This document shows positions 904 through 30,952 of a DNA stretch of 64,000 bases, piece after piece (the first letter of the stretch is position 1; the number at the start of each line of letters is the position of its first letter). The stretch is from the NCBI GenBank assembly GCA_017792445.1, contig CP051232.1, forward strand, positions 1,736,001-1,800,000, given 5' to 3'. Both the position numbers and the translations under genes were made by a program. The notes beneath the pieces were generated by a model that saw only the letters and a program-made list of their open reading frames with translations, had not been told where the DNA came from and did no database searches. The stretch comes from Maritimibacter sp. (GTDB taxonomy: Bacteria; Pseudomonadota; Alphaproteobacteria; Rhodobacterales; Rhodobacteraceae).

Positions 904-957
904 TTTTTCGCAAAAGTGGGAGTTGCGATTCTCTGCGAATTTTTATACTTTTTCGCA
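904..957 (-). promoter_or_regulatory. Two TGCGAAAAA motifs upstream of motA
   Basis: On the minus strand TGCGAAAAA occurs at 957-949 and 912-904. The first continues as TGCGAAAAAGTATAAA, identical over 16 bases to the site before flgG at 8437. It is also half of an imperfect palindrome spanning 934-957. The gap is AT-rich against a GC-rich background. A promoter or regulator site for motA is an inference. Confidence 0.5.
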
Positions 958-984
958 TAACAGCGTTAAGGCTCGGAGGCCTCG

Positions 985-1992
985 ATGACACATCGCCTGA
1001 CTGGCTCGTTCGTCAGACTGTTCGGACGGTCCGAATTCATCGCGAATCCTGACTGGCCTGATGATATCGGGCTGGCTTTCGTCGTCGCCGATGGTGTGCC
1101 GCAACAGCTGCATCCGTTTCACGAGAACGAATCATCCTCCGCCGTTCTGGACCGGATCGAGGAACAGATCGGCGACCTGACGGACTATGGCATCCATTCG
1201 GTCACCGCCGAGGAGCACTATGGCCGCCATGCCTTTTCCTTCGACCGCGAGCTTCTGAAAATTCTCGAAGACCGTATCGTCGAGGACGAGCAACTGCTTG
1301 AAGAGGCCGAGACGCTGGCGATCAACATCCGGTTCGCGCAGGACATGGGGATGGACTATACCCCGGCGCCCATCGCCACGCCGGCGATGCAGCCGGCGGT
1401 CAAGGAGCCTGCCGCGCTGCCCGACGCCGCGCCGTTGTCCGAACCCGAGGCCACGCCGGACCAGCCGCCGCAGGATGCGCATCAGGCCTACGCCTTCCTT
1501 GGCTATCATTATTTCTCGCCCTCCGACCCGACCCTGCCGCTGCTGGAAACGGCCACGCTGGAAACCACGGCCTCGGGCGAGGTGCTGCTGCGGTTCGACG
1601 CCGACGGCCCGCGGATCACCTGCAATCCCGACGAACTGCTGGTCCGCTGGGACCGTACCGGATTCGCGTTGCCCGCCTTTTCCTGCGTCGTCGATAACAA
1701 GCTTGCGTCCTGCGTGGAACTTCCGGCGGGTCTGGTCCCCGCCCCGGTCGCGCAACGCCGCAGCAAGTCACGGCCCATCGTGTCGATGGTCGATGACATG
1801 CTTCAGGTGTCCTACACCGCGACCCCGGCAAAGCGGCGCAGCCCGCGCGGCCGACTGTTCGCGGCGCTTGGGGTCTCTGCCTTCGTCGCCGCCTCGCTTG
1901 CGGTGACGGCGGTCTTCGTGATGGAGCGGTTCGACACCGTGGCCCATGCGGACACCCCGGTCGAAGCGCTGCGGTCCGAGATGTTCCGCTAA
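985..1992 (+). CDS. Unrecognised single-pass membrane protein beside motA
   Basis: 335 residues; I do not recognise the family. Residues about 1-115 form an acidic, probably globular region, followed by a Pro/Ala/Glu-rich linker (about 120-165), a second globular segment, a basic stretch KRRSPRGR and a predicted transmembrane helix at about 291-312, with a short tail. A C-terminal anchor would leave most of the protein in the cytoplasm. GGAGG lies just before the ATG. It is divergent from motA and faces the leftward flgL with a terminator between them. Location suggests a motility role, but nothing in the sequence proves it. Confidence 0.75.
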   Translation: MTHRLTGSFVRLFGRSEFIANPDWPDDIGLAFVVADGVPQQLHPFHENESSSAVLDRIEEQIGDLTDYGIHSVTAEEHYGRHAFSFDRELLKILEDRIVEDEQLLEEAETLAINIRFAQDMGMDYTPAPIATPAMQPAVKEPAALPDAAPLSEPEATPDQPPQDAHQAYAFLGYHYFSPSDPTLPLLETATLETTASGEVLLRFDADGPRITCNPDELLVRWDRTGFALPAFSCVVDNKLASCVELPAGLVPAPVAQRRSKSRPIVSMVDDMLQVSYTATPAKRRSPRGRLFAALGVSAFVAASLAVTAVFVMERFDTVAHADTPVEALRSEMFR

Positions 1993-2024
1993 GACACCCG
2001 CCGCCTTTTCTCGGTTTCTGTCCC

Positions 2025-2058
2025 CCAAAAAAGAAAACGCCCCGCACATGGCGGGGCG
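2025..2058 (-). terminator. Rho-independent terminator after flgL
   Basis: On the minus strand an 8-9 bp GC stem (GCGCCCCGC / GCGGGGCG arms at 2037-2045 and 2051-2058) is followed by a T-rich run, 24 bases past the flgL stop. It probably also separates flgL from the convergent gene ending at 1992. Confidence 0.85.
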
Positions 2059-2081
2059 CTTTCCGACCCTGTCGACGCTTG

Positions 2082-2984
2082 TCAGAGGTAATCGAGCAGG
2101 GTCATGCCCGAAATGCGGGCGGTAATCTGGTAGCTGACCTCCAGCTGGTTCATCACCTGGTTCAGCCGCAGCGCGGTTTCCTCGGGCTCGGCGGTCTCGA
2201 TGCCCGAAATGGCCGCGTTGTAGATGCTGAGGCGCGAGTACTGGTCGTCGATCTTCTGTTCGAGAACCGACTGGTTGTTGCCCAGCCGCGCACCAAGCGA
2301 GGTCAGCTGGGTCAGGCCGTCGTTCATCAGCGTGGTCACCGTGTCGCGCATCGCTTCGAACCCGGCGTCGTCCAGCGCATCGAGGTTGGTGGTCAGCACG
2401 ATTTCCAGCGCGTCGAACACGTTCTGGAACGCGGCATCGTCGGCGCGGATCCCGTAGTTCATCTGCGTCGTGTCGTCGATCTTCATCGCGAGATTGCCGG
2501 TGGTGTCGCCCAGATAGTTCACCGCGTTCCCCGTGCCGTCGATCTCGACCGGAGCGGTGTCGGTCGCGAGGCCCGAGAACAGGAACTCGCCGCCGTAGGT
2601 CGTGTTCAGCATCGACACGATGCCCTGCAGCGTGATCTCGGCCTGCTGGCGATACTCGTCGCGGTTCTGCGAGGTCAGGCCGCCAGCCAGCGAAATATCC
2701 TGAAACTCGCGCGCGGTTTCGGTGATCTGGGACAGCGAGTCGTACATATTCTCAAGCTTGCCTGCGAGAAGCTCGTTCGAGGTCTTGTAGGACTCGGTCG
2801 CCGACATCCGGGTGCGGATCTGCAGCGTCTTGGTCGCCGCGCCGGGGTTGTCGGCATAGACGTCTTGCTTCACGCCGGACGCGGCTTCTTGCGCCAGCTT
2901 GGCCTGCTCGGCGTTGTTGCGGGCGATCACCAGACGCATGTCCAGAGACTGTTGCGCGGTGGAAATGGTGGAGATGGTAGGCAT
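2082..2984 (-). CDS. flgL: Flagellar hook-filament junction protein FlgL
   Basis: 300 residues, close to the usual FlgL size. The N-terminal segment STISTAQQSLDMRLVIARNN and the C-terminal helix with EETALRLNQVMNQLEVSYQ are the paired D0/D1 coiled-coil segments of the flagellin/HAP3 family. FlgL caps the FlgK ring and provides the first layer on which filament flagellin assembles outside the cell. It is last in the leftward unit flgE-flgK-flgL, 14 bases after flgK, and is followed by a strong terminator. Confidence 0.93.
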   Translation of the reverse strand: MPTISTISTAQQSLDMRLVIARNNAEQAKLAQEAASGVKQDVYADNPGAATKTLQIRTRMSATESYKTSNELLAGKLENMYDSLSQITETAREFQDISLAGGLTSQNRDEYRQQAEITLQGIVSMLNTTYGGEFLFSGLATDTAPVEIDGTGNAVNYLGDTTGNLAMKIDDTTQMNYGIRADDAAFQNVFDALEIVLTTNLDALDDAGFEAMRDTVTTLMNDGLTQLTSLGARLGNNQSVLEQKIDDQYSRLSIYNAAISGIETAEPEETALRLNQVMNQLEVSYQITARISGMTLLDYL

Positions 2985-2998
2985 CTTCGCTGTCCCTC

Positions 2999-4399
2999 TT
3001 AGCCGAACGCCGCCATGAGCGTGTCGAGCATTTCGTTGACCGACGTCATGACGCGGGCGTTGGCGGCGTAGCTTTGTTCGATGACAAGCAGCTTCTGCAT
3101 CTCGTCGTCGATGCTGACGCCCTCGTAGTTCTCGCGCGAGGCAGAGATCGTCTCGCCCGCGGTCTGGGTGGCCAGCGTGTCGGCCTCGGCGGCGGCGCGG
3201 GCGGACTGCTGATAGGTCACCATCGTCGGCGCCAGATCGATCAGCGTCAGGCCCGTGCCCAGACCGGCGGTTGCGACGGTGACGGGCTGCGTGAAGGCGT
3301 CCAGCATCGCATCGACGAAGGTCGAATCCCCGGCGGGCGTGGTGGCGATGCCGCCGCTTTGCAGGATGGCGGCGTCTCCGCCGGCAGAACTGTCGGCCTC
3401 GGCGTTCACCTGAATCCGCGCGGCAAGCCCGTCAACGGCGGCGGCGTCGAAGACCGCGCCCGCATCGGTGAACAGGCCGGTTCCGGTGGCGCCGAACGGG
3501 TTCGCCGTCTCCATGCTCGAGATCAGGTTCGCCGCCAGCGAATCCAGCTGCGCGCCAATTTCGGGCAGCCGTTCAAGCTTCAGCTCGAACAGCCCGCTCA
3601 GGCTGCCTTGCGAGATGCCGCGCGTGGCTCCGCCCGGCGTGATGTCGATCCCGCCCGCGGCCAATGTCCCGGCGACCGAGTCGTAGGTGATCGTCTTGGT
3701 CCGCGTCCCCACGACAAGCTCGGTGCCGCCGCCGGTGTACAGGTTAACCGTCCCGTCCTCGGTGCTGACGATCTGGATATCCATGTAACCGGCCACTTCG
3801 TCCAGCAGCAGGTCCATCTGGTCCATGTATTCGGCCTGTACCGCCGACCCTTCTTCCGACCGCAGGATCTTCTGGTTGAAGGTCGCGATGTTCTGCAAAG
3901 CCTCGTTCACCGAGACCACGTCGTAGCGGATGTTCCGTTCGACCTCTTGCTGGATGTCCGAAAGGTTCGCCGACAGGTCGTTCAGGTTCTCCGCCACCTG
4001 CTTGGCGACGGTCACAACCTGGATCTGGGCGGCCTCTTCACTGGGCATGCCGGCAAGCGTGACCACCGCGTCGTGCAGACCGGCGATCATCGCGGCGGGC
4101 GAGGTCTCGTCGCTTGGCTGGCCAAGGAAATCGGTAAAGGCGCTTAGCCCGTCCGAGACCGTCGAGTCCTTGGTCAGCTTCGACTCGTTCTCGCGGTCCA
4201 GCCGCTGAAGCATCGTGCTGACGCTGCGATCCACCGACGACACCGCGACGCTTCCGTATTTCGTCGTGATGAGGTCCGCCGACTTGCGTGCGAAGCCCTC
4301 GGTCGTCGAGTTGGCGATGTTGCGCGAGACCAGATCGGTCTGCAAAGCGGTGACCGAAAGGCCGGACCGCGCAACGTTCAAGGCTTGGGTTAGCGACAT
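2999..4399 (-). CDS. flgK: Flagellar hook-associated protein 1 FlgK
   Basis: 466 residues, shorter than the 547 of E. coli but normal for alphaproteobacteria. The N-terminus (ALNVARSGLSVTALQTDLVS, then RNIANSTTEGFARKSADL) is the rod/hook-type signature for axial proteins. The C-terminus (EMQKLLVIEQSYAANARVM, then MLDTLMAAFG) is the matching terminal coiled coil. It forms the first junction ring between hook and filament after export through the flagellar type III system. It lies between flgE (12-base gap) and flgL (14-base gap), so the three are almost certainly co-transcribed. Confidence 0.95.
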   Translation of the reverse strand: MSLTQALNVARSGLSVTALQTDLVSRNIANSTTEGFARKSADLITTKYGSVAVSSVDRSVSTMLQRLDRENESKLTKDSTVSDGLSAFTDFLGQPSDETSPAAMIAGLHDAVVTLAGMPSEEAAQIQVVTVAKQVAENLNDLSANLSDIQQEVERNIRYDVVSVNEALQNIATFNQKILRSEEGSAVQAEYMDQMDLLLDEVAGYMDIQIVSTEDGTVNLYTGGGTELVVGTRTKTITYDSVAGTLAAGGIDITPGGATRGISQGSLSGLFELKLERLPEIGAQLDSLAANLISSMETANPFGATGTGLFTDAGAVFDAAAVDGLAARIQVNAEADSSAGGDAAILQSGGIATTPAGDSTFVDAMLDAFTQPVTVATAGLGTGLTLIDLAPTMVTYQQSARAAAEADTLATQTAGETISASRENYEGVSIDDEMQKLLVIEQSYAANARVMTSVNEMLDTLMAAFG

Positions 4400-4411
4400 T
4401 CCGGATCAGCC

Positions 4412-5701
4412 TCAGCGTTTCAGGTTGTTGATTTCCTGCAGCATCTCGTCCGAGGTGCTGATGATCTTCGCGTTCGAGGAATAGGCGCGCTGAACCTGGA
4501 TCAGGTCGGTCATTTCCTGCGCGATATCCACGTTCGAGGCTTCGGTCGCACCGGATTCGATAGACCCGGCGCCGGACCCGGCGACGTTCATCACAGCGTT
4601 CCCCGACGCAAGCGACAGCGAATAGGCGTTGCCGGTCTCGGCCTCCAGCCCGGCGGGCGCGTCCACCGTGGCGACCGGGATCTGGTACAGCGACAGCCGG
4701 TTGCCGTTCTCGAACACGCCGACAAGGTTGCCCTGCTCGTCGATCTCGGTCTTCTCCAGCGCGGCGGTCGAGGTGCCGTCGACGGTGATGCTTTGCGGTT
4801 CGTAATCGCCGTCGAACTGGGTGATGCCGTCGTAGGTGCCAACCGCGCCCAGCGCGATGTCCAGCGTCTGCGGAACGGCGGCGTTGTCGATCGTCAGGGT
4901 GATGTTGCCGTCAGCGTCCACCGCGAAGGCGGCGGGTGCGACCAGACCGGCGTCGGGCGTGCCGACATAGGTCAGCGGCGCGCCTGCGGTGGCGCCAGAG
5001 TCGGCGAAGGTGACGTCGACCGTGCCATAGACGGTACCGTCGTCGCCGCTGACTTCCATGGTCCACAGGTTGTCCACGGCGTCCGAGGGCGTCCAGCTGA
5101 AGGTCAGCCCTTCCTGCGCGCCCAGCGCGTTGTAGTAGGTCATGCTAGAGATGAACGGATCCTGCGCGACGCCGGTGCCGGTCAGGCTTGACGGCAGGTT
5201 GCCGGCGATGGTGCTTTCCGTCGACGCCTCGGCCGTCAGCGACGCCGTCTTCGTGTTCACCGCTTCAAGCGACCCGAACCCGTTACGGTCGACCCCGGCG
5301 ACGGTGCCATCGTCGTCATAGGCGTAACCGGCAAGGTAGTAGCCGGCCGAGTTCACCAGATAACCGTCCTTGTCCACCTCGAACGAACCGGCGCGCGTCA
5401 GCAGGAAGTTCGATTCATCGGTGCTTTCGGGATCCTTCATCACGACGAAGAAACCGTCGCCATCAATCGCAAGATCGGTGGCCGAGCTGGTCCCGATGAT
5501 CGCACCGGCCAGTTCGATGTTCGACCGGTCGACACCGCGCACCGAGGCAGAATCGCCCACCACCTGCGTGACCATCTGGGTGAAGCTGCGCTTGTAGCCG
5601 ATGGTGCCGGAGTTCGCGATGTTCTCCGAGATCCGCCCAACGGCCTGGGAGTTCGTCTTCAGACCCGCGACGCCGGCCTGCATTGCATTCTGAATGGCCA
5701 T
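4412..5701 (-). CDS. flgE: Flagellar hook protein FlgE
   Basis: 429 residues. It begins MAIQNAMQAGVAGLKTNSQA and carries SENIANSGTIGYKRS, the N-terminal flagellar axial signature. The C-terminus has VDIAQEMTDLIQVQRAYSSN followed by SDEMLQEINNLK, the conserved hook/rod closing motif. It polymerises into the curved hook that joins rod to filament; its length is set by FliK, encoded at 13.3 kb. A GGGAAAG ribosome site precedes the start. It follows the MotC-like gene by 51 bases, so that gene's promoter region probably also drives flgE-flgK-flgL. Confidence 0.95.
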   Translation of the reverse strand: MAIQNAMQAGVAGLKTNSQAVGRISENIANSGTIGYKRSFTQMVTQVVGDSASVRGVDRSNIELAGAIIGTSSATDLAIDGDGFFVVMKDPESTDESNFLLTRAGSFEVDKDGYLVNSAGYYLAGYAYDDDGTVAGVDRNGFGSLEAVNTKTASLTAEASTESTIAGNLPSSLTGTGVAQDPFISSMTYYNALGAQEGLTFSWTPSDAVDNLWTMEVSGDDGTVYGTVDVTFADSGATAGAPLTYVGTPDAGLVAPAAFAVDADGNITLTIDNAAVPQTLDIALGAVGTYDGITQFDGDYEPQSITVDGTSTAALEKTEIDEQGNLVGVFENGNRLSLYQIPVATVDAPAGLEAETGNAYSLSLASGNAVMNVAGSGAGSIESGATEASNVDIAQEMTDLIQVQRAYSSNAKIISTSDEMLQEINNLKR

Positions 5702-5752
5702 TTCTGTCTTTCCCTTTCGGCTCGTATGGCGGACCGCGGTCTGCCGGTTTTC

Positions 5753-7558
5753 TTAGTGTCCCGTGTTTTCTGTCTTCATCAGCTCGGTGACCGCCGTCAG
5801 CGTTTCACCGGCCTGTTCAAGTGTCTTCTCGGCTGCCTCGACCGACAGGGGCGAGACGACGGGCGCTTTCGCGACCCGTGCCGCGGCCAGCCGCAGCAGC
5901 AGCGCGCGACGTTCCTCGGGCAGCACCCGCAGGAAGGCCGCAGTGTCCGGGTCCCCCTGTTCGGCGGCCAGCCGGGCGGCGTTGATGCCGTCGACAGCCG
6001 GCAGGATGCCCGCCCGCTCGAATTCGGTAAGGGCGCGGTCGTCCATGCCGCGTTCCAGCGCCTCGCGCGCGACTTCCAGCGAAACGCCGGGCACCGTGGC
6101 GGTGATGCGTTCAAGGCTACCGGTCACGACCATTTCGATTTTCGCAAATTCGGGATCAAGCGAGGCGTCCATCTGCACCGGACGCTGCGCGATGATCGCC
6201 ACTGCTGCGGCCGGGTTGCTGTCGCGCATCAACCGTTTGGCCTGTTCCAGCACCAGCCGGTCCAGCAGCGCGGGCGGCAGGGCGCGGCGGTCCGGCCCAA
6301 GCAGGGTGTCCCAGATCTCGGCGTATTCCGCCTGCGCCGCCAGCGTCAGCCCCGCCCTTTCCAATTGCGCCGCCAGCGCGCCGCGCACGATGGCGCGTTC
6401 GACGTGGCGGCTCATGTAGGGCTCGATGTGCCGCACGATGGGCAGCGACCGGCCCAGCGAAAGCGCGTCGCTTCCGATGGCGTCCGAAAGGTGGTTCAGG
6501 ATCACGGCGATGCGTTCCGCCGCAAGATCGGCCTCGCGGGTGCCGGGGTGATCCTCTTCGATGAAGGACATCGTGACGATCGCGGTCTCGAGGTCGCCAA
6601 TCTCTTCCGCCACCTGCGCAAGCCGGGTCAGCAGCGCCAGCGCAAGCGCGTCGCCGCGCCAGTGCCGGATGCCCTCGACCAGCAGGTCGCGCACGTGTTC
6701 ACGGATCGCCTGGCCGGGCTCTTCCAGCGCAAGCTCGGCAAGGGCAAGCCGAGCCTGCGCGGCGGAACGATCCCGGCCTTCGGCGGCCCATGCGAACAGG
6801 TCGAAAGCGGTCTGCCGTTCTCCCTCCGCGCGCGCGAGACGGCCGCGCATGAACAGCATCTGCGGCGTTCCGACAAGGTCGGTGCGCAGGCGGGCGACGT
6901 CCAGAATGTCACGCGCCAGCCGGTAATCTTCGACGCCAAGCGCCGCGTCGAACAGCATCGGCACGATCTGCGCCACAACCGGACCGCTGTGGCGTTCCAG
7001 ACCGACCAGCGCCTGCAGAATAAGGTTCGCATCTACCGGTACGCCGTTCCGGATCTCGGCCACGATCGGCCAGACAAGATCGTTCTGCCAGCTTTCCGGA
7101 AGCGCCACCGTCTCGGCCTGCGGATCAGTTTCGGACAGCAGCGACACCAGCGCGCGGTACGCCTGAATGCGGTCCCGCAGGTCGCCCTTCCCTTCCAGCG
7201 TGCGGGCGGCAAAGTCGATGTAGCCGCGCGCCTCGGGCAGCATCATCCATGAAATCAGGAACTGGGCGTGATCCAGCGCGGCGCGGCCACGTGCGCCCGG
7301 CAGGGCGTCAACGAAAGCCTGCTCGGACGCCGCGCGGTCGGCAGAGAAGTCAGACCCCGCCAGCCGGGTCAGGCCGGGCTCGGGCGGAACCATGGCGTGC
7401 GAATCGGCGCTTTCCGCATGCGCCGGGCCGCAGACAAGCGCCGCCGACAAAAGAGCCACACCGCCAACGATGCAGCGCGCACGCAAGGAAACAAGGGAAA
7501 GACCGATCTGCTTCAACGTATTCCGAGCCTTCGTATCTCGATGTTCAGTTTTTCGCAT
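5753..7558 (-). CDS. Large periplasmic helical-repeat protein, possibly MotC-like motility factor
   Basis: About 601 residues from an ATG at 7558; the frame stays open to another ATG at 7603 and the true start is unsettled because neither has a clear ribosome site. A hydrophobic segment ending GPAHAES looks like a Sec signal peptide with a long basic n-region. The rest is almost entirely alpha-helical with TPR-like pairs (for example AQARLALAELALEEPGQAIR), suggesting a periplasmic scaffold. It is first in the leftward unit with flgE-flgK-flgL. Periplasmic MotC-type proteins assist the stator in Rhizobiales, and this is my best analogy from size, export and position, not from a recognised motif. 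The motif TGCGAAAAA overlaps the 7558 start. Confidence 0.6.
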   Translation of the reverse strand: MRKTEHRDTKARNTLKQIGLSLVSLRARCIVGGVALLSAALVCGPAHAESADSHAMVPPEPGLTRLAGSDFSADRAASEQAFVDALPGARGRAALDHAQFLISWMMLPEARGYIDFAARTLEGKGDLRDRIQAYRALVSLLSETDPQAETVALPESWQNDLVWPIVAEIRNGVPVDANLILQALVGLERHSGPVVAQIVPMLFDAALGVEDYRLARDILDVARLRTDLVGTPQMLFMRGRLARAEGERQTAFDLFAWAAEGRDRSAAQARLALAELALEEPGQAIREHVRDLLVEGIRHWRGDALALALLTRLAQVAEEIGDLETAIVTMSFIEEDHPGTREADLAAERIAVILNHLSDAIGSDALSLGRSLPIVRHIEPYMSRHVERAIVRGALAAQLERAGLTLAAQAEYAEIWDTLLGPDRRALPPALLDRLVLEQAKRLMRDSNPAAAVAIIAQRPVQMDASLDPEFAKIEMVVTGSLERITATVPGVSLEVAREALERGMDDRALTEFERAGILPAVDGINAARLAAEQGDPDTAAFLRVLPEERRALLLRLAAARVAKAPVVSPLSVEAAEKTLEQAGETLTAVTELMKTENTGH

Positions 7559-7577
7559 TTCAGGGCTATGCGAAAAA
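7549..7577. promoter_or_regulatory. Palindromic TGCGAAAAA site between divergent flagellar units
   Basis: A perfect inverted repeat with 10-bp arms (TTTTTCGCAT at 7549-7558, ATGCGAAAAA at 7568-7577) and a 9-base spacer. It lies about 100 bases before flgF and at or in the start of the leftward MotC-like/flgEKL unit. The symmetry suggests a dimeric regulator controlling both directions; that is inference. Confidence 0.5.
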
Positions 7578-7675
7578 TCAAGATCATGTATAGTCCACAT
7601 CATCGGCTTTGATCAACACAAATCAACCAGCCGTTGAAAACAGGTCGGGGAACTCGGCCAAAGGAACGGGACGCA

Positions 7676-8416
7676 ATGGATAACATCGGATACCTCGCGA
7701 TCTCACGTGCGGCGATGCTGCAGCGCGCGACCGACGTGACCGCGAACAACATCGCGAACGCCAACACTTACGGCTTTCGTGCCGTCGGTCCGGTCTTTGA
7801 AAGCATGGTTCACCAGACCGACTCGAAGACCGACATGCGTGACATGGCCTATGCCATCGACCGGGGAACCTATGCCGACCTGACCGAAGGCGCGCTGGTG
7901 CAGACCTCGAATCCGCTCGACGTGGCGCTGGTCGGCGACGGATGGTTCGGCTTCATGACCACCAACGGCCAGACGGCGCTGGGCCGTGGCGGCAGCTTCA
8001 CCCTGTCTGCACAGGGCGATCTGGTCACCGTTGCAGGCGATTTCGTGCTGGACGAAGGCGGTGCGCCGATCAACATCCCGCCCGGCTCCGGCAATATCGA
8101 GATCGGCGAGGACGGCACGATCACCGACGAACGCGGCGATCGAATCGCTCGGATCGGCGTGTTCGAAGCGACCGACATCGGCAACTGGAACCAGCTTGGC
8201 GGCGCCATGCTGGCCCCGCGCGGCGGTGTCGTTGACCTGATGCCGGTGCTTGAACCCACCATGGCACAGGGTTTCGTCGAACAGTCGAACGTGAACCCGA
8301 TCCGCGAGATGACGCGGCTGATCGAATTCCAGCGCCAGTACGAAAGCGCCATGAACCTTGCCTCTGCCACTGACGAGCTTCGGAAAACGACGCTTGGCCG
8401 GCTGGCCCCCGAATGA
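7676..8416 (+). CDS. flgF: Flagellar proximal rod protein FlgF
   Basis: 246 residues from the ATG at 7676, chosen because AAGGAACGG sits just upstream and the protein then starts MDNIGYLAISRAAML as FlgF/FlgG proteins do. Signature VTANNIANANTYGFRA lies near residue 22. The C-terminus has NVNPIREMTRLIEFQRQYES followed by LRKTTLGRLAP. It builds the proximal rod that crosses the periplasm. It is first in the rightward unit flgF-flgG-flgA-flgH, with 46 bases before flgG that hold a second promoter-like motif. Confidence 0.93.
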   Translation: MDNIGYLAISRAAMLQRATDVTANNIANANTYGFRAVGPVFESMVHQTDSKTDMRDMAYAIDRGTYADLTEGALVQTSNPLDVALVGDGWFGFMTTNGQTALGRGGSFTLSAQGDLVTVAGDFVLDEGGAPINIPPGSGNIEIGEDGTITDERGDRIARIGVFEATDIGNWNQLGGAMLAPRGGVVDLMPVLEPTMAQGFVEQSNVNPIREMTRLIEFQRQYESAMNLASATDELRKTTLGRLAPE

Positions 8417-8436
8417 TGCCTTTTCGCCCATCAATT

Positions 8437-8452
8437 TGCGAAAAAGTATAAA
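8437..8452 (+). promoter_or_regulatory. TGCGAAAAAGTATAAA element before flgG
   Basis: This 16-mer is identical to the minus-strand copy upstream of motA (957-942). It ends at the AAGGAG ribosome site of flgG, about 10 bases before its ATG. It could be a -10-like or operator element giving flgG extra expression; no experimental support. Confidence 0.45.
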
Positions 8453-8462
8453 GGAGACGTAG

Positions 8463-9245: not shown

Positions 9246-9247
9246 TC

Positions 9248-9940: not shown

Positions 9941-9988
9941 CCCAGCACCCGACCCCTTGGCACCGCACTTCAACCGCACACGCAAGTA

Positions 9989-9998
9989 TTGCGAAAAT
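9989..9998 (+). promoter_or_regulatory. TGCGAAAA-type element before flgH
   Basis: TTGCGAAAAT lies 14 bases before the flgH ATG, a four-A variant of the recurring motif, followed by a short GAGA/TCTC dyad. Its spacing to the start resembles that at flgG. Confidence 0.35.
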
Positions 9999-10011
9999 CT
10001 GAGAGAATCTC

Positions 10012-10779
10012 ATGCGTATGAAATCCCCCAAACCCGCGATGACCCTGACGCTGGCCGCGTTCACCCTGAGCGCCTGCGCCGCCTACAAGGAACACCGCGA
10101 CCCCGAACTGACCTCGATGGTGCTGGACGAGACCACGATGCCCGAGGTGAACACCGTCTATGTTCCGCAGCCGGAACCCGAGCCCGTCCGCATGCCCGAC
10201 CGGGCCGAGGCGACATCGCTGTGGCGCACGGGGTCTACAGGTTTCTTCGGCGACCACCGCGCCTCGCGCGTGGGGGACATCCTGACGGTGACGATCGACA
10301 TCGACGACGAGGCCGAGCTAGAGAACGAATCCCGCCGGTCGCGGTCCTCGGGGAACGAGATCGACGGGTCCACCTTCCTTGGCTACGAAAGCAAGCTGGA
10401 TGCGATCCTGCCCGGCATCAACGCCGATGACCTGCCGTCGGGCTCGATCATCGACCTGTCCGGCGAAAGCTCTTCGCGCGGTCGCGGCAGCATCGCCCGG
10501 AACGAGAAGATCAAGCTGAAGGTCGCCGTGATGATCATCCGGCGTCTGGGCAACGGCAACCTCGTGATCGCGGGCCGGCAGGAAGTGAAGGTGAACAGCG
10601 AACTGCGCGAGTTGCGCGTCGCGGGCATCATCCGTCCGGTCGACGTCGACATGACCAACGCCATTCCCTACGACAAGATCGCCGAAGCGCGCATCAGCTA
10701 TGGCGGCAAGGGTCAGCTGACCCGCGTCCAGACCCCCCGCTATGGCGAGGATATGCTGGACGTGGTCCTGCCTTACTGA
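10012..10779 (+). CDS. flgH: Flagellar L-ring lipoprotein FlgH
   Basis: 255 residues with a lipoprotein signal: a hydrophobic stretch followed by the lipobox LSAC (Cys22). The body has the FlgH signatures SLWRTGSTGFFGDHRASRVG and DILTVTIDIDDEAELENES, then NGNLVIAGRQEVKVNSELRE near the end. It forms the outer-membrane L ring that acts as a bushing for the rod. An in-frame ATG two codons downstream is an alternative start. It is 71 bases after flgA and 18 bases before a FliL-like gene. Confidence 0.95.
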   Translation: MRMKSPKPAMTLTLAAFTLSACAAYKEHRDPELTSMVLDETTMPEVNTVYVPQPEPEPVRMPDRAEATSLWRTGSTGFFGDHRASRVGDILTVTIDIDDEAELENESRRSRSSGNEIDGSTFLGYESKLDAILPGINADDLPSGSIIDLSGESSSRGRGSIARNEKIKLKVAVMIIRRLGNGNLVIAGRQEVKVNSELRELRVAGIIRPVDVDMTNAIPYDKIAEARISYGGKGQLTRVQTPRYGEDMLDVVLPY

Positions 10780-10797
10780 TCCGGGACAGGTGGCAAG

Positions 10798-11247
10798 ATG
10801 AGCCGTGCCGGCAGTCTGAAGGCGTCCGTGTTCAAACGCCCGACAAAGCGGACCGCGTTCGTCGCGGTCCTGCTGTTGGGGTGCGCCGGGGGCGGTTTCG
10901 CCCTTGGCCAGAAGGCGGGCGAAACCCTGTTTCCCCCCGAAGCGCCCGACCGCGTCGTTCCCACAACCTCGATCCTGCTGGAGTCGCTGACGGTCAACAT
11001 CCCCGGACGCGGCACGATGACGTTCAACGCCCGCGTTGCGGTGCCGAACGACGGGTCGTCCGTTGACGGCAAGGCCCTGCGCGACGCTGCTCTTATGCTG
11101 GCGACCACCGCGGGCGCGATGCCCATTGTCCGGCAAAGCGACAAGGTCATTCCGGCGATGAACCGTGCGGTCAGCACCATCGCGCCGGGGCATGGGTTCG
11201 AGACCATCGAACTGGAAGACGCCGCGCTGTTCGCCACCGGGATCTGA
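10798..11247 (+). CDS. FliL-like single-pass membrane protein
   Basis: 149 residues: a basic N-terminus (KRPTKR), one transmembrane helix at about 18-38, and a periplasmic domain beginning VPTTSILLESLTVNIPG. That arrangement, the size and the vNI-type strand fit FliL, which surrounds and stabilises the MotAB stator, but similarity is not strong enough to be certain; another motor-associated protein is possible. It is the last gene of the rightward flg unit and faces convergently the leftward motB, 164 bases away. Confidence 0.5.
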   Translation: MSRAGSLKASVFKRPTKRTAFVAVLLLGCAGGGFALGQKAGETLFPPEAPDRVVPTTSILLESLTVNIPGRGTMTFNARVAVPNDGSSVDGKALRDAALMLATTAGAMPIVRQSDKVIPAMNRAVSTIAPGHGFETIELEDAALFATGI

Positions 11248-11411
11248 CCGGACTTCCCAACATCAGTCTTACGAAGACGCTGCCTGGTATCGCGCGGCGC
11301 TGCACCCGGTCTTTCTGGACCGGGACGCCCTCGTGGCATGACGGAATTGCTCGGCAGGTCGTGGGCGTGCCGGAACAATCCCTACCGCCACGCAGGACAA
11401 CGACCGCGCCG

Positions 11412-12329
11412 TCAGTTCGACGCGGGCCCTTCCTCGGTGCCGGGCAGGCGAAGCTCGATGGTGACGCGGCGGTTCCGGGCATCGTTGGGGTCGTCGGCGT
11501 ACAGAGGCTCGACAGCCGCCATGCCGGTCACGCTTTTGATCCGCGCGGCGGCGATTCCCTCGTCCAGCAGAAGCCGCCGCGTTGCGTTGGCGCGGTCGGC
11601 GGACAGTTCCCAGTTGCCATACTCGGTGCCGTCCCGGAACGGGTGAGCATCGGTGTGGCCGGTGATGGTGATGTCCATCGGCAGCCCTTTGATCGCAGGC
11701 ACGACCTCGGCCAGGATCAGGCGCAGGTCTTCGCTGGGATTCGCGCTTCCGGTCGGGAACATCGGGTGATCGCCAAGATCGACAACCTCGACGATCATGC
11801 TTTCGTCCAGCACCGTCACCTGCAGGTTCGCCGCCAGATCCGACAGTTCCATCTTCTCGGCGAAGCTTTCCTCGATCTGGTCCAGCGCCTCAGCCAGACG
11901 GTCCGTCAGCATCGTGGTCGGTTCGTCCACGCGGGGCTCTTCGGTCGATCCGTTGTCCAGCTCCAGCCACGGGTTCACCGCACCGGTCCGGGTTTCGGCG
12001 ATGTCGGCCTCTTGCTGACCCACCTCGTCCGGGCCCTTCGGCATCGATTCGGCGTCTGGGGCCGGTTCGCTTTCCGGTGCCTTTATCGCGTCGATCACGA
12101 CGCCAAGACCGCTGATCTCGACCAGCGGAACCTCGGACGGGGTGAAATACTCGGCCAGACCGCGCAACTGTTCCTCGTCGGACCCGGACAGGATCCAAAG
12201 CAGCAGGAAGAACGCCATCAACGCCGTCATGAAATCAGCATAGGCAACCTTCCAGTTGCCTCCATGGTGGCCTTTGGTCACCTTCTTCGGTCGCTTGATG
12301 ACGACGTGCGGTTCGTTCTTCAGGTACAT
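11412..12329 (-). CDS. motB: Flagellar stator protein MotB
   Basis: 305 residues from the ATG at 12329; the frame is open further upstream, but this start gives the normal N-terminus. A basic leader is followed by WKVAYADFMTALMAFFLLLW, a single membrane helix carrying the proton-binding D32 at the same number as E. coli. A Pro/Glu-rich linker (about 70-130) leads to an OmpA-like peptidoglycan-binding domain with ITGHTDAHPFRDG and LSADRANATRRLLLDEG. It anchors the stator to the cell wall and forms the channel with MotA. It is divergent from the sigma-factor gene. Confidence 0.95.
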   Translation of the reverse strand: MYLKNEPHVVIKRPKKVTKGHHGGNWKVAYADFMTALMAFFLLLWILSGSDEEQLRGLAEYFTPSEVPLVEISGLGVVIDAIKAPESEPAPDAESMPKGPDEVGQQEADIAETRTGAVNPWLELDNGSTEEPRVDEPTTMLTDRLAEALDQIEESFAEKMELSDLAANLQVTVLDESMIVEVVDLGDHPMFPTGSANPSEDLRLILAEVVPAIKGLPMDITITGHTDAHPFRDGTEYGNWELSADRANATRRLLLDEGIAAARIKSVTGMAAVEPLYADDPNDARNRRVTIELRLPGTEEGPASN

Positions 12330-12408
12330 TTTACTCAAACTTTCCGGATTCGGACCAAGGCGGCCGGACTCAACCAAGACAACTTGCCTGACCTTAGCAC
12401 GTCGAACT

Positions 12409-12417
12409 TGCGAAAAA
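12409..12417 (+). promoter_or_regulatory. TGCGAAAAA motif in the motB/sigma gap
   Basis: One exact copy lies in the 258-base divergent region, 80 bases upstream of motB and about 170 bases before the sigma-factor ATG. The rest of the gap shows no clear promoter to me. Confidence 0.35.
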
Positions 12418-12587
12418 AGCAAAACTTGGCAATGATTATCGCATGAGCCGCGGAATCAGGATCATAACGCCGTTCTTGGTGGCAAACGCCAATTCCCTGT
12501 TCAGCCCGAGTCCTGGGCGAACGGGTTTGGGCCACCCGGAACCGTGGACCATCCTGCGCCGTGGCGCCGATTGTTTCGGGGACGCCG

Positions 12588-13283
12588 ATGCTTGACAGCT
12601 CCACGATCCACACGCCGAACGGACCGGTCGCGCCGGTCTGGCCCGGTCTCGTTGATGACGAAGTGCGTCAGGTCGTCGAAGACAACCTGCCGATCGTTCA
12701 GGCGATGGCCCGCCGCCGGACCCGCGATCCGCAGGATCAGGCCGATCTTGTATCCGCCGGGGTCGAGGCGATGATCCGCTGTCTTCCCAACTATGTGCCG
12801 CAACCGGACGTGCCCTTTTTTGCCTACGCCACGCGCTACGTGCGGTCCGCCATGGCGCGCGAGGCCGCATTTATTGCCCGCTCGGTCAGCATTCCCGAGC
12901 GCAAGTCCCGCGATGCGCGGTCCGGCCGGATGGCCGAGGATGAAGCCGCGCTGGTGCGCGGGGCGATGCGGGCGACCGACATCACCGACATGCAGGACGA
13001 ACTTGCGTCACCGCAGGCCGCCGCCGACACCGGGCTGGTCCGGCAGGAAACCGACGACGCGATGCGCGCGTTGCTGGATCTTGCGCTGTCCTCGCTGACA
13101 GAGGCCGAAGCGCAGGTGATCCGTGACCGGCTGTCCGCCGACCGGAACACCAGTACAGGCGAAGCGATGCTTGACAGTTTGGCCGGCAAAATGCGAAAAA
13201 CTGAACAGCGGGCCTTGATGCGGATGCGGACCTTCCTTCTGCGTCGCGGGATCACGGCCGACTTCATGAATTCGGGGACCTGA
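12588..13283 (+). CDS. Sigma-70 family factor in the flagellar locus
   Basis: 231 residues from the ATG at 12588 with GGGGA upstream; a GTG at 12561 is the alternative. Sigma region 2 spans about 27-100: VEDNLPIVQAMARRRTRDP, then LVSAGVEAMIRCLPNYVP and FFAYATRYVRSAMAREAAFI, covering core-binding and -10-recognition helices. Region 4 is at about 165-225 (LSSLTEAEAQVIRDRLSADR, then a degenerate helix-turn-helix). Region 3 is weak. It resembles group 3 factors (FliA/RpoH-like) but I cannot assign it to either. It overlaps fliK by one base, tying it to flagellar expression. A specialised flagellar sigma is the likely role, by inference. Confidence 0.8.
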   Translation: MLDSSTIHTPNGPVAPVWPGLVDDEVRQVVEDNLPIVQAMARRRTRDPQDQADLVSAGVEAMIRCLPNYVPQPDVPFFAYATRYVRSAMAREAAFIARSVSIPERKSRDARSGRMAEDEAALVRGAMRATDITDMQDELASPQAAADTGLVRQETDDAMRALLDLALSSLTEAEAQVIRDRLSADRNTSTGEAMLDSLAGKMRKTEQRALMRMRTFLLRRGITADFMNSGT

Positions 13284-14605
13284 TGGACATTTCGCTTCCG
13301 ACCCTGCCGACCTCTGCCCCGCCTCGTGCGGCGGCTGGCGACCGCTCGGCTGATGGAACGGGCGCGGACGGCTTCAGCCGGCTGCTTGGCGAAGAGCCCG
13401 CCGCGGACAAACCCGCGGCCGGGCCTGCGAAGGCATCCGAGGAAACAGAACAGACAGGCGACGACGAGCAGATCGAAGACGAAGCCGGTACGCAGTCCCC
13501 CGCGGAAGACGGGTCAGTAGAGGACGGCGCGGCCAAAGAGGTCCGGAGCGAAGACGGACTTGAGGCGAGCAGGCCGGTCGGGACCGACATAGACATGTCC
13601 GGTGAATTCCGGTCCCGACCGGCGCAGGCGAAGGAAGAGACGCCCGAACCGGTGCCGGACATCGCGCCAGAGTTGCAGGCTGACACGGCGGAAACCCCTG
13701 CCCCGCAGCAACCGGCGCAAGCGATATCGCCAGAAACCGTCCTGCCCGAGACCACGGACGCACCGATCGCCCCCGGCCCACAGCCCGTTCCCGAAGACGC
13801 CGATGCAGAGCTTCCGGTTCTTGATGCCGAGATGCCGGAGATCGCGCCGCTGCGGGCAGCCGCCGAGAAGACCGCGACGCCGGTCAGCGCCGCCAAGGCC
13901 TCGGAGCCGGTGCAGATCGTGCAGCAGATCCCGACCTCCGCCGAGACCGCGCAGCCAAAGGCAGCGGCCCGCGCCGAACCCACCTTCGCGGATCTCGTCA
14001 CCGAAGCCACGCAAGACTCGGGCGAGGCCGCCGAGATACCGCGCCCCCGCACCGCAACGCCGGCGCCGCAGGTGCAGTCCACCACAACGCAACCGGTGGA
14101 ACAGACGCTGTCGACCGCGCAGATCCGCGCCGCCGTCGCGCAACTGACCCTGGCGCCTACGCAGGAAACCCCGCAACCCGCGCCGCAACCGAAATCGCCC
14201 ATCGTGCAGAAGGTCGTCGATCAGGTCGCGCAGCTTCCGACCGAGCCCGGAACCACCACCATCCGCCTGAAACCGCACGGCATGGGGATCGTCGAGATCT
14301 CGGTCGAGCGCACCAAGGACGGACGGCTGGACGTGGACATGCGGGTGCAGAACCCGCTGGTGCTGGACGCGATGCGCAACGAGCGCGGCGCGCTGTCCCA
14401 TCTGTTTCAAGGCAACGGCGCCAACGGATCGCTTTCGATGGACCTGTTCCAGCCCGGTGCCGGGCGGAACGGTCAGGACGCACCAGGCGACACGTCCGAT
14501 CAGACGTCCGAACCCCTTGCCGACGACGCGGGCGAAGAGCCGGTCGAAACTGCCGCCGCCGCGACCCCGAAACGGGTCTCGAGCGGCCTCGATATCCTGA
14601 CATGA
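13283..14605 (+). CDS. fliK: Flagellar hook-length control protein FliK
   Basis: 440 residues. The first about 310 are Pro/Ala/Glu-rich, low complexity and probably disordered, as in the ruler part of FliK. The conserved C-terminal hook domain follows: TTTIRLKPHGMGIVEISVER, then DVDMRVQNPLVLDAMRNERG and LSHLFQGNG. FliK is exported as a molecular ruler and switches the export gate from hook to filament substrates. Its ATG overlaps the sigma-gene stop by one base and flgD follows after 10 bases, so the three genes form one unit. Confidence 0.88.
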   Translation: MDISLPTLPTSAPPRAAAGDRSADGTGADGFSRLLGEEPAADKPAAGPAKASEETEQTGDDEQIEDEAGTQSPAEDGSVEDGAAKEVRSEDGLEASRPVGTDIDMSGEFRSRPAQAKEETPEPVPDIAPELQADTAETPAPQQPAQAISPETVLPETTDAPIAPGPQPVPEDADAELPVLDAEMPEIAPLRAAAEKTATPVSAAKASEPVQIVQQIPTSAETAQPKAAARAEPTFADLVTEATQDSGEAAEIPRPRTATPAPQVQSTTTQPVEQTLSTAQIRAAVAQLTLAPTQETPQPAPQPKSPIVQKVVDQVAQLPTEPGTTTIRLKPHGMGIVEISVERTKDGRLDVDMRVQNPLVLDAMRNERGALSHLFQGNGANGSLSMDLFQPGAGRNGQDAPGDTSDQTSEPLADDAGEEPVETAAAATPKRVSSGLDILT

Positions 14606-14615
14606 GGACCCGACA

Positions 14616-15272
14616 ATGAGCATCAGCACCGTCTCTGCCGCGACCGTAACCACCACCTCGGAATCGACGCTGTCCCAGCTTGGCGAGGACTACGAAACCT
14701 TCCTTGGCCTGCTGGTCGCGCAGGTTCAGAACCAGGATCCTCTGGAACCGATGGACGCGACCCAGTTCGTCTCGCAGATCGCGACGCTGACGCAGGTCGA
14801 GCAGTCGGTGAACATGAACGCCCAGCTCGAGCAGCTTCGGTCCAGCCTTGCGCTGACCGCATCCATGTCCGAAGCCTCGCTGATCGGCCGCACCGTTTCC
14901 GTGCCGTCCGACACCATCACGTTGCACTCGGAAGGGATGCCGCTTGCCTTCGGCTATGAACTTGAAGGAACCGCAAGCGCGGTCAGCGCGGTCATCACCG
15001 ACGCCAGCGGCAACGTCGTGCGCACCATCGGCGACCTGTCGACTGCGACCGGCGTGATCAACGATGTGGTTTGGGACGGCTACGACGCCAACGGCGACCT
15101 CGCCCCCGTCGGGACCTACCAGATTTCCCTGACCGCCACCGACGCGACCGGCGGGTACAACACCTATGTCCGCGACACGGTCAACTCGGTGTCCTACGTC
15201 GGCGGTCAGCAGATCCTGAACCTTGCCGATGGCACCATGGCCAGCAGCGGCGACATAGTGATGATCGAATAG
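14616..15272 (+). CDS. flgD: Flagellar hook-capping protein FlgD
   Basis: 218 residues. The N-terminal signature DYETFLGLLVAQVQNQDPLE (residues about 25-44), continued by PMDATQFVSQIATLTQVEQ, is diagnostic. The C-terminal half has the FlgD Ig/tudor-type fold, with VVWDGYDANGDLAPVGTYQI matching the conserved WDG.d..G...p.G.Y block. It caps the growing hook and guides FlgE polymerisation. It sits directly after fliK. Confidence 0.95.
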   Translation: MSISTVSAATVTTTSESTLSQLGEDYETFLGLLVAQVQNQDPLEPMDATQFVSQIATLTQVEQSVNMNAQLEQLRSSLALTASMSEASLIGRTVSVPSDTITLHSEGMPLAFGYELEGTASAVSAVITDASGNVVRTIGDLSTATGVINDVVWDGYDANGDLAPVGTYQISLTATDATGGYNTYVRDTVNSVSYVGGQQILNLADGTMASSGDIVMIE

Positions 15273-15297
15273 ATCGGCCACTTAACGGCGGATAGAA

Positions 15298-15306
15298 TGC
15301 GAAAAA
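15298..15306 (+). promoter_or_regulatory. TGCGAAAAA motif before the DUF882 gene
   Basis: Exact copy ending 4 bases before the ATG at 15311 and 26 bases after flgD, a position where a ribosome site would normally be. It could act at transcription or could simply be an AT-rich leader. Confidence 0.3.
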
Positions 15307-15310
15307 CGTT

Positions 15311-15913
15311 ATGAATCTCTCACGACGTAATTTCATCGGCAAGGTCGCCGCCACCGCGGCCTTCGGTCTGGCGCCGGGCATCCCCGCCTTTGCCGCCGGA
15401 CTGGACATTCCCGCACCGGTCCGCACCGACAGTCGCCTCGACAAACTTGTGCCGTTCATCGAACCGTACCTCGACCTCTACAACCCCAACACCGATGAAC
15501 GGGAACGTGTCATGTTCTTCGGCACCTCGGGGTACGACCTGAAAGGGTTGCAGACGATCAACTACCTTCTGCGCGACTGGCGGCAGAAGCAGGTGGTTCA
15601 GATGGACGTCCGGCTGTACTGGGCGCTTGCCGCGATGCGCACCGCCGCCCTGCGCGACGGTCTGACCGGCGAGATTCAGGTGAATTCCGGCTATCGCAGC
15701 AAGCGGACGAACGACCTGCTGCGGGCGGAAGGCTACGGCGCGGCGGTCAACTCGTTCCACACGCGCGCCCGCGCGATCGATTTCGTGGTGAAGGGTGGCG
15801 ACGTCGCGAACGTGGCGCGCTATGCCCAGTGGTTGCAGATCGGCGGAACCGGGCACTACCGCGGACGGTTCGTGCACATCGATTCCGGCGATCAGCGGGT
15901 CTGGTTCGGTTAA
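15311..15913 (+). CDS. Tat-exported DUF882 / peptidase M15-like protein
   Basis: 200 residues. The N-terminus SRRNFIGKVAATAAFGLAPG is a twin-arginine signal, so the protein is exported folded. The rest matches DUF882 (YcbK-like), related to zinc D,D-carboxypeptidases: the metal-site segments SFHTRARAIDF and GRFVHIDSG with the GYRSKRTN block. The likely substrate is peptidoglycan in the periplasm. Its position just after flgD suggests a role in opening the wall for rod or hook passage, which is inference; in other bacteria that job belongs to FlgJ-type enzymes, and I see no flgJ here. Confidence 0.85.
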   Translation: MNLSRRNFIGKVAATAAFGLAPGIPAFAAGLDIPAPVRTDSRLDKLVPFIEPYLDLYNPNTDERERVMFFGTSGYDLKGLQTINYLLRDWRQKQVVQMDVRLYWALAAMRTAALRDGLTGEIQVNSGYRSKRTNDLLRAEGYGAAVNSFHTRARAIDFVVKGGDVANVARYAQWLQIGGTGHYRGRFVHIDSGDQRVWFG

Positions 15914-15920
15914 GCCCGGA

Positions 15921-16544
15921 TCAGCAAGCTGTCCGGACGGATCCCAGGATCAGGATATCGGAAACTTCGCGTTTCATTCTCGCATAGCCGCGCTTCATAT
16001 CGTCCTGCGACGCGAATTCGGTGTAGCCAGGCGCCGTCCCACGCCAAATGTCCAGTAGGACGCTGGTCTTGCGCGCGGACAGCGGCGCCTCGGTCCGGTA
16101 TTCGGAAATAAGGCTGCGTTGGGCGCGGGCGACACGAACACCGTCCGGCGCGTCCGCACGGTTGAGATCAAGAATGCGGCCGTCGGCACTTTCAAGCCAG
16201 AACCCGCGCCGGTAGAGCGCGCCGGTTCCTTCCGCGACGGTGACACGCCCGGAAACGGCTTTCCAACCGGGCCCGTCGCGACGCGCCTCGGCTTCCGTCA
16301 GCGCATCGAGCGCAAGGAATGTAAGGTCGATCGCCGGCAGCGGAACCTGGCCCACGGGCAGCCCGCGGTTGAGAAAATTAGAAAGCGGCTGGCAGAATTC
16401 CCTGATGTGGTGGCCGACCTTCAACAGGCGTGCGCCCTTGAGGTCATCGGTGCCCAGGCCGGCATTGCGAGGGGAACAATCCCGGTTAATCGCAAATAGC
16501 TGGGCGGTGCGGAGTTCTTCCGTCTGTGTTTGTGTCACTGTCAT
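15921..16544 (-). CDS. Unrecognised protein
   Basis: 207 residues from an ATG at 16544; the frame stays open to an ATG at 16637, and the ribosome site is poor for both. No signal peptide or membrane segment. The middle carries WKAVSGRVTVAEGTGALYRR followed by GFWLESADGRILDLNRA, which reads as real protein, and the C-terminus is basic with MKREVSDILILGS. I do not recognise the family. It is convergent with the DUF882 gene (8-base gap). Codon use looks like its neighbours, so I believe it is expressed. Confidence 0.6.
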   Translation of the reverse strand: MTVTQTQTEELRTAQLFAINRDCSPRNAGLGTDDLKGARLLKVGHHIREFCQPLSNFLNRGLPVGQVPLPAIDLTFLALDALTEAEARRDGPGWKAVSGRVTVAEGTGALYRRGFWLESADGRILDLNRADAPDGVRVARAQRSLISEYRTEAPLSARKTSVLLDIWRGTAPGYTEFASQDDMKRGYARMKREVSDILILGSVRTAC

Positions 16545-16786
16545 CTCGGTCTTTGAGGAACCCGGCGTCTCGCTCTTTTTGGCGAGCTCCGGATTCGCTT
16601 TTAAAGTGTGTCTCCGAAATCGACTCTCGCATGACATGCTTGAAGCTCAAATCAGTATCCCTGTGCATTTCTCGGATTTTATCCACAGATCGGCGCATTA
16701 ACCACAGTTGTGTGGTCAAAGCCGCAGCAACCCCTAGATTGTGTCCGGATTGTGTTCGGTGAACGCGTTTGATCGAACGATTGATG

Positions 16787-16795
16787 TGCGAAAAA
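16787..16795 (+). promoter_or_regulatory. TGCGAAAAA motif upstream of the ParB-like gene
   Basis: Exact copy of the motif found before the flagellar genes, 420 bases ahead of the ParB-like start, with weaker variants downstream. It links this gene to the flagellar promoters. Confidence 0.35.
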
Positions 16796-30840: not shown

Positions 30841-30952
30841 GGCCGGATTTACAGTGACGTAACTTCGCCGACAAGCCTCCTTCTGCTTCACACCCGGGAA
30901 ATTTGCGTTAAGTGGGCCTTGGGGCGCCTTCCACGGGCGCAATGGGTTGAAC

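What the first reader, a model, noticed from the sequence alone, without database searches (positions are those of the whole stretch)
904..16795. TGCGAAAAA: a motif confined to the flagellar region and placed before its genes
I find nine exact copies on either strand: 904-912(-), 949-957(-), 7549-7557(-), 7569-7577(+), 8437-8445(+), 12409-12417(+), 13192-13200(+), 15298-15306(+) and 16787-16795(+). Eight are intergenic or at a gene start; only 13192 is clearly inside a gene. I saw none from 17 to 64 kb. In DNA this GC-rich, a 9-mer with six A/T should occur less than once in 64 kb (rough composition estimate). It precedes motA, the MotC-like/flgEKL unit, flgF, flgG, motB or sigma, the DUF882 gene and the ParB-like gene; flgH has a close variant. 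I do not recognise it as a CtrA, LexA, FlbD or sigma-28 element.
Basis: partly seen in the sequence, partly recalled or inferred. Interest (0 to 1): 0.72.

Follow-up and report, generated by a model that had tools for sequence, protein, structure and literature searches.

The report
Flagellum gene cluster's private control switch
A short DNA word repeated through one bacterium's flagellum genes is probably the landing site of a regulator made by the same gene cluster, and related bacteria seem to use a different word, as if the switch and its regulator had changed together.

Summary
Confirmed and extended. All nine TGCGAAAAA copies are in the window (0.27 expected). The genome (4.675 Mb) has 24; 16 lie in one ~42 kb flagellar cluster that runs from left of the window to about 17 kb. 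The core is eight bases, W-TGCGAAAA-W-NNN-W; this extended form occurs 23 times, 19 in the cluster. A same-genus genome keeps 22 of 24 core sites. Gene content matches the fla2 reference cluster of Marinovum algicola (34 of 45 proteins). Fla2-like clusters of 14 other genera almost lack the word (0-1 each) but carry CAAGRATA in their gaps (14 of 14; none in the window's cluster or its close relative's). All encode an OmpR/CtrA-like regulator beside flgI; a recognition-helix segment is FDKVI in 17 of 18 relatives and YMKAL in the TGCGAAAA pair. Best reading: TGCGAAAA is the operator of this cluster-borne regulator, and site and protein changed together; which form is older is open. Not explained: 10 of 24 sites lie in coding sequence, 9 of them sense (1.2 expected), and eight exact copies lie elsewhere. 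No binding was measured.

The parts
904..912 (-). TGCGAAAAA, 51 bp upstream of motA (minus strand)
   Evidence: conserved in G001
949..957 (-). TGCGAAAAA, 96 bp upstream of motA
   Evidence: conserved
6138..6146 (-). TGCGAAAAT inside the MotC-like gene, sense
   Evidence: conserved core
7549..7557 (-). TGCGAAAAA at the assumed first codons of the MotC-like gene (5753-7558 minus)
   Evidence: conserved
7569..7577 (+). TGCGAAAAA, 107 bp upstream of flgF
   Evidence: conserved with flanks
8437..8445 (+). TGCGAAAAA, 26 bp upstream of flgG, in the flgF-flgG gap
   Evidence: core conserved while the upstream flank diverges
9990..9998 (+). TGCGAAAAT, 22 bp upstream of flgH
   Evidence: TGCGAAAAA in G001
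12409..12417 (+). TGCGAAAAA in the motB/sigma divergent gap, 152 bp upstream of the sigma gene start used here
   Evidence: conserved
13192..13200 (+). TGCGAAAAA inside the sigma-70-family gene, sense, 91 bp upstream of the fliK-like gene
   Evidence: conserved
15298..15306 (+). TGCGAAAAA, 13 bp upstream of the DUF882/M15 peptidase gene
   Evidence: core kept in G001 with a 5-bp shorter distance to the ATG
16787..16795 (+). TGCGAAAAA, 427 bp upstream of the ParB-like gene
   Evidence: not conserved in G001
12561..13283 (+). sigma-70-family factor of the cluster (rival trans-factor)
   Evidence: Sigma70_r2 and TIGR02937
5753..7558 (-).

Best explanation
TGCGAAAA (extended: W-TGCGAAAA-W-NNN-W) is most likely the DNA operator of the OmpR/CtrA-like response regulator encoded at the left end of this fla2-type flagellar cluster (G000:C1:1711913-1712614, minus; left of the window). 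Inferred mechanism: a winged helix reads TGCGAAAA in the major groove and its wing touches A/T base pairs beyond it; bound in the promoter gaps of flgI/regulator, fliF/fliL, flgB/fliI, motA, MotC-like/flgF and motB/sigma, with extra sites inside operons, it switches the whole cluster and its own gene together. Shown: the motif, its concentration, its conservation, the regulator's place and domain, and a different box in the gaps of relatives. Inferred: that this protein binds it, and that it activates.
For: Concentration: 16 of 24 exact copies and 19 of 23 extended sites genome-wide are in 42 kb. Conservation: 22 of 24 core sites kept in G001, several with diverged flanks. A/T of either kind at -1 (21 of 24), +8 (21 of 24) and +12 (24 of 24; p 1e-7 before correction for 80 flank positions) suggests readout of double-stranded DNA. 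Regulator: only a Trans_reg_C match in Pfam, no receiver match; a site 19 bp from its start. Relatives of it (37-45% identity) in 16 other genera of 393; in all 14 clusters fetched it sits beside flgI, as in named plasmids. Those 14 have 0-1 TGCGAAAA each; their gaps carry CAAGRATA, 1-6 per genome in 14 of 14 (shuffles 0.05-0.25), against 0 in G000 and G001; pooled, CAAGAATA 26 vs 0.8 expected, CAAGTATA 10 vs 0.3, CAAGGATA 11 vs 0.7. Recognition segment FDKVI in 17 of 18 relatives, YMKAL in G000/G001.
Against: No binding or expression data. The change is a single event seen in two close genomes (one a MAG with 10% estimated contamination). By sequence alone the regulator is hardly closer to its fla2 counterparts (132-158 bits) than to CtrA-like proteins of other families (118-121 bits), and in the tree the pair joins the CtrA side, so orthology rests largely on gene neighbourhood, and the direction of change is open. 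Its whole DNA-binding domain is diverged (43% vs 71% among the others), so the helix changes are not singled out; Roseivivax shares the His next to this segment yet has CAAGAATA. In any single promoter the relatives' box is patchy: strict CAAGRATA in 6 of 14 flgI/regulator, 6 of 6 fliF/fliL, 4 of 8 flgB/fliI and 3 of 12 U616/flgF gaps. In coding sequence 9 sites are sense vs 1.2 expected, 1 antisense; an ordinary operator predicts no such strand bias. Sites 13-30 bp from start codons do not suit an activator of that same gene.
Confidence: 0.6

Rival explanations
1. The element works in RNA: UGCGAAAA in flagellar mRNAs is bound by an RNA-binding protein or by a small RNA carrying UUUUCGCA.
For: 13 of 13 conserved sites whose direction can be judged (9 in coding sequence, 4 in one-directional gaps) are sense; coding sites exceed a synonymous-codon shuffle 9 to 1.2; several lie at -30 to +10 of start codons; three TTTTTCGCA lie together on the plus strand at 3336.8 kb.
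Against: A and T are interchangeable at -1, +8 and +12, which base pairing would not tolerate; some sites lie upstream of probable -10 boxes and would then not be transcribed (inference from sequence); of the 3336.8 kb triple only one is kept in G001, as TGCGAAAAT; its fold is unremarkable (z -0.96) and it has no Rfam match.
Confidence: 0.15
2. TGCGAAAA is a promoter element read by the sigma-70-family factor encoded in the cluster (window 12561-13283).
For: The direction bias suits a promoter element; the factor is in the cluster and has a site upstream and one inside.
Against: No second element at a fixed distance: beyond +12 only one position exceeds 0.35 bits (+39, 0.53 bits). Homologues or same-place sigma genes exist in clusters without the word or nearly so.
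Confidence: 0.1
3. Another protein of this lineage's cluster (for example the ParB-like, U238 or U335 product) binds the sites.
For: These three are in G000 and G001 and had no tblastn match in the M. algicola or S. pontiacus stretches.
Against: No Pfam or NCBIfam match for these proteins; U335 has a match in G387, which lacks the word; the site near the ParB-like gene is not conserved.
Confidence: 0.1
4. Composition or codon-usage accident.
For: The six promoter gaps listed have 45-55% A+T in a GC-rich genome.
Against: Shuffles and reversed controls, codon-preserving shuffles and conservation speak against it.
Confidence: 0.01

Closest known systems
FtcR of Brucella melitensis (flagellar OmpR-type master regulator; PMC9456535, passages read)
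   Same: Flagellar OmpR-type regulator whose top ChIP-seq motif is an asymmetric 8-mer (TGTGGGCA, 118 of 363 sites) and which binds its own promoter.
   Different: Different 8-mer; different order of bacteria; orthology to the regulator here was not tested.
CtrA of Rhodobacterales
   Same: Best NCBIfam match of the regulator (RespRegCtrARhodob, 115.9 bits); CtrA controls flagellar genes in Rhodobacterales (PMC12363192, abstract).
   Different: Far below the model cut-off of 350; no TTAA-N7-TTAA in the G000 or G001 gaps.
fla2-type flagellar gene cluster (Marinovum algicola pMaD5; PMC12363192, abstract and passages)
   Same: 34 of 45 cluster proteins match by tblastn, and a response regulator sits beside flgI.
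   Different: M. algicola carries CAAGRATA boxes and 2 TGCGAAAA; in the window's genome flgL-flgK-flgE lies elsewhere in the cluster rather than beside the regulator.
Pho box / OmpR-family half-sites (recalled)
   Same: A short recognition-helix word followed by an A/T stretch for the wing.
   Different: No clear tandem second half-site here.

Membership tests
fla2-type flagellar gene cluster | Gene content of the M. algicola reference cluster | tested here: met
   34 of 45 proteins match
fla2-type flagellar gene cluster | Groups with fla2, apart from fla1 and fla3, in a FlhA/FliF/FlgH/FlgI tree | not tested
   No fla1 or fla3 reference was fetched
fla2 cluster-borne response regulator family | OmpR-type winged helix, gene beside flgI in a flagellar cluster | tested here: met
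fla2 cluster-borne response regulator family | Groups with the fla2 regulators apart from CtrA | tested here: inconclusive
   The tree puts G000/G001 on the CtrA side with support 0.756 and long branches; but G000 lacks the two one-residue gaps of the CtrA-like rows
fla2 cluster-borne response regulator family | CAAGRATA box in its gaps (a feature found here) | tested here: not met
   0 in G000 and G001 gaps, 1-6 in 14 of 14 others
CtrA | Equivalog cut-off of NF045991 | tested here: not met
   115.9 bits, cut-off 350
CtrA binding site | TTAA-N7-TTAA | tested here: not met
   0 in the G000 and G001 gaps
FtcR | Orthology to Brucella FtcR | not tested
   No FtcR sequence was fetched or aligned
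Sigma-factor promoter | Two elements at a fixed spacing | tested here: not met
Operator of this regulator | Binding in vitro or in vivo | not testable with these tools
   needs a bench test

The most novel reading that the evidence does not exclude
Two lineages of the same flagellar cluster type use different operators throughout: CAAGRATA (with CtrA-type TTAACC sites) in 14 genera, TGCGAAAA in the Maritimibacter pair, together with a different recognition helix and wing in the cluster's own regulator. This would be a natural case of a whole regulon and its regulator changing together, direction unknown. The sense-only sites inside genes may be a further, unknown, direction-dependent function.
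Probability: 0.5. Interest if true: 0.72.

Novelty: new variant of a known kind. Interest (0 to 1): 0.56.

Why it matters
Fla2-type clusters are reported to spread by horizontal transfer, almost half of them on plasmids (PMC12363192, abstract and passages). A private regulator with a private operator would explain how a 40-kb cluster stays coordinately controlled in new hosts. Neither TGCGAAAA nor CAAGRATA turned up as a flagellar motif in the listings of two literature searches. The pair of boxes offers a testable case of a whole regulon differing in its operator, and the strand-biased sites inside genes are an unexplained observation.

Tried and rejected
Small RNA from the 3336.8 kb triple: only one of three copies survives in G001, as TGCGAAAAT; its fold is not special. 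The 189-aa gene next to it occurs in 19 of 394 family genomes, of which only G000 and G387 also have the flagellar regulator, so it does not track with it.

GGCGAATT, GTATTGGCG and TTGGCGATA, enriched in G275, G314 and G141, lie in coding sequence in 19 of 20 places, some of them in rod and hook genes; discarded.

A first EM search collapsed to an A/T-rich profile; repeated with a fixed site number and a mixed background. A pattern search for inverted pairs TTTTTCGCA-N0-30-TGCGAAAAA gave 4 of 394 genomes; the three besides G000 were not followed. The single-protein genome-contig scan gave one locus. The four class-wide hits of the regulator outside the family look CtrA-like (the two CtrA rows used for comparison were named by sight). 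In one search I entered 17 of 24 for the clustering test; the right count, 16 of 24, is. Of 16 other genera with the regulator, clusters of 14 were fetched (G143 and G384 not), some only in part. In the single clusters the box is among the five top 8-mers in 3 of 14 (G092, G316, G358), first in S. pontiacus, second in R. marinus, not in the top eight in S. mediterraneus or M. algicola. The looser CAWGDATA does not separate the groups: whole clusters 6 (G000) and 2 (G001) against 5-21, gaps 2 and 1 against 1-10. Rows left out of the FDKVI count: Malg_RR2, L129-L132 and the two CtrA rows. Genes left out: U509 and U325.
Full report
OBSERVATION. All nine copies are real; one-mismatch sites are not enriched (15 with the nine, 11.8 expected). 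The window is G000:C1:1736001-1800000 of a 4.675 Mb genome, which holds 24 copies: 16 between 1712.6 and 1752.8 kb, one at 1693 kb, three at 3336.8-3336.9 kb and four more single ones. The reversed pattern gives 9. A same-genus relative, G001, has 27 copies, 16 of them in the syntenic cluster; three further same-genus genomes have 8, 29 and 20 copies without such a cluster in the listed places, and their best regulator matches are only 33-34% identical.

THE ELEMENT. In the cluster the eight-base core TGCGAAAA occurs 24 times (1.5 expected from trinucleotides): 14 sites in gaps and 10 in coding sequence. The sites have A/T at -1 (21 of 24), +8 (21 of 24) and +12 (24 of 24) (23 sites, where +10 is T or G in 21 of 23). 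The extended pattern WTGCGAAAAWNNNW hits 23 places in the genome, 19 of them in the cluster, with 1 in the reversed control; in G001 24 places, control 2. The pattern was derived from the cluster sites, so its cluster count is partly circular; the scarcity elsewhere is not.

CONSERVATION. In an alignment of the cluster with G001 (85% identity of aligned bases), 22 of 24 core sites are kept, and G001 has no further one there. The lost ones are the only antisense coding site (in fliF) and the site before the ParB-like gene. At flgG and in fliL the core is kept while flanks diverge; at the DUF882 gene it is kept although the distance to the ATG changes by 5 bp.

DIRECTION. The nine conserved coding sites and the four in one-directional gaps are all sense; the other nine lie in divergent gaps, where one direction always fits. 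Synonymous-codon shuffles of 43 genes give 1.2 sense and 0.3 antisense coding sites against 9 and 1 observed, maximum 4 sense in 1000 shuffles. Two of the nine (U193, U616) count as coding only because I took the ATG inside the motif as the start; without them seven remain. This bias is the main unexplained result.

SURROUNDINGS. The cluster runs from the response regulator and flgI at the left to the DUF882 gene at about 16 kb and perhaps the ParB-like gene at 17-19 kb in the window. Gene names were given by sight and agree in the main with the annotated M. algicola genes where they match (34 of 45 proteins; S. pontiacus 31 of 45). A similar layout occurs on plasmids of Sulfitobacter pontiacus and Roseivivax marinus. 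The fla1, fla2 and fla3 types are from PMC12363192 (abstract and passages read).

TRANS-FACTOR. The regulator has a C-terminal OmpR winged helix and no receiver match in Pfam at E 0.001; it scores far below the CtrA cut-off. A partner kinase was not looked for. Relatives at 37-45% identity and E below 1e-31 occur in 16 other genera of 393 in the family, beside flgI in all 14 clusters fetched.

RELATIVES. In those 14 clusters TGCGAAAA occurs 0-1 times each, and in 0 of the 40 divergent gaps compared. Their gaps instead carry CAAGAATA, CAAGTATA and CAAGGATA. Strict CAAGRATA is in the gaps of 14 of 14 (1-6 each, shuffle means 0.05-0.25) and in none of the G000 or G001 gaps. By promoter it is in 6 of 14 flgI/regulator, 6 of 6 fliF/fliL, 4 of 8 flgB/fliI and 3 of 12 U616/flgF gaps; the looser CAWGDATA in 10, 6, 7 and 8. 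The looser form also has 2 matches in the G000 gaps and 1 in the G001 gaps. In annotated records: S. pontiacus, CAAGGATA 17 vs 0.78 expected, 8 of the 17 in gaps, in mixed orientation inside genes; M. algicola, 9 CAWGDATA in the 39 kb cluster, 7 of them in gaps, and 2 in 58 kb of control plasmid, though the box is not among its top 8-mers; R. marinus, CAAGAATA 6 vs 0.07; S. mediterraneus (a 14.6 kb part), 8 CAWGDATA and 1 TGCGAAAA. The G000 gaps hold 1 TTAACC and no TTAA-N7-TTAA, G001 0 and 0, while each of the 14 relatives has at least 2 TTAACC and 11 of 14 at least one TTAA-N7-TTAA. Counts run over both strands, so palindromes count twice.

PROTEIN CHANGE. The five residues before the Asp of the recognition helix (position by analogy with PhoB, recalled) are FDKVI in 17 of 18 relatives (FDKVL in G316) and YMKAL in G000 and G001; the wing differs too. 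The whole domain is diverged (43% against 71% among the others), so this is suggestive, not proof. In the tree the pair is a long branch on the side of the CtrA-like rows (support 0.756), so it may be an early branch or a fast one, and TGCGAAAA may be the older or the younger operator.

LITERATURE. FtcR of Brucella has an asymmetric 8-mer as top ChIP motif and binds its own promoter (PMC9456535, passages), a precedent for the form of the motif. Searches for TGCGAAAA with 'flagellar' and for CAAGAATA/CAAGGATA with flagell/Rhodobacter returned no paper on such a flagellar motif in their listings (none of these papers was opened).

VERDICT. A real, conserved, cluster-specific element, best read as the operator of the cluster's own regulator and as the counterpart of the CAAGRATA box of related clusters. 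The link to the protein rests on place, domain and co-variation in one event.

Noticed in passing
G000:C1:3336786-3336929 (L012 10786-10929): Three TGCGAAAAA on the minus strand within 144 bp, upstream of and opposite to a 189-aa gene without family match; one copy kept in G001 as TGCGAAAAT.
   Followed up: partly
fla2-like clusters of 14 genera, L105, L128: CAAGRATA boxes, at times as inverted pairs (for example before the sigma gene of M. algicola), a flagellar motif for which the searches found no paper.
   Followed up: yes
window 30791-30842 (-): serC leader RNA (RF00517), 73 bits, above the gathering score.
   Followed up: no
window 985-1992, 15921-16637, 17214-19040: Proteins without Pfam or NCBIfam match in and at the edge of the flagellar cluster.
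   Followed up: no
L128 28837-29499: A second, very diverged response regulator in the M. algicola fla2 cluster.
   Followed up: no
G046, G056, G259 (L065, L068, L066): Inverted TTTTTCGCA/TGCGAAAAA pairs in three other genera of the family.
   Followed up: no
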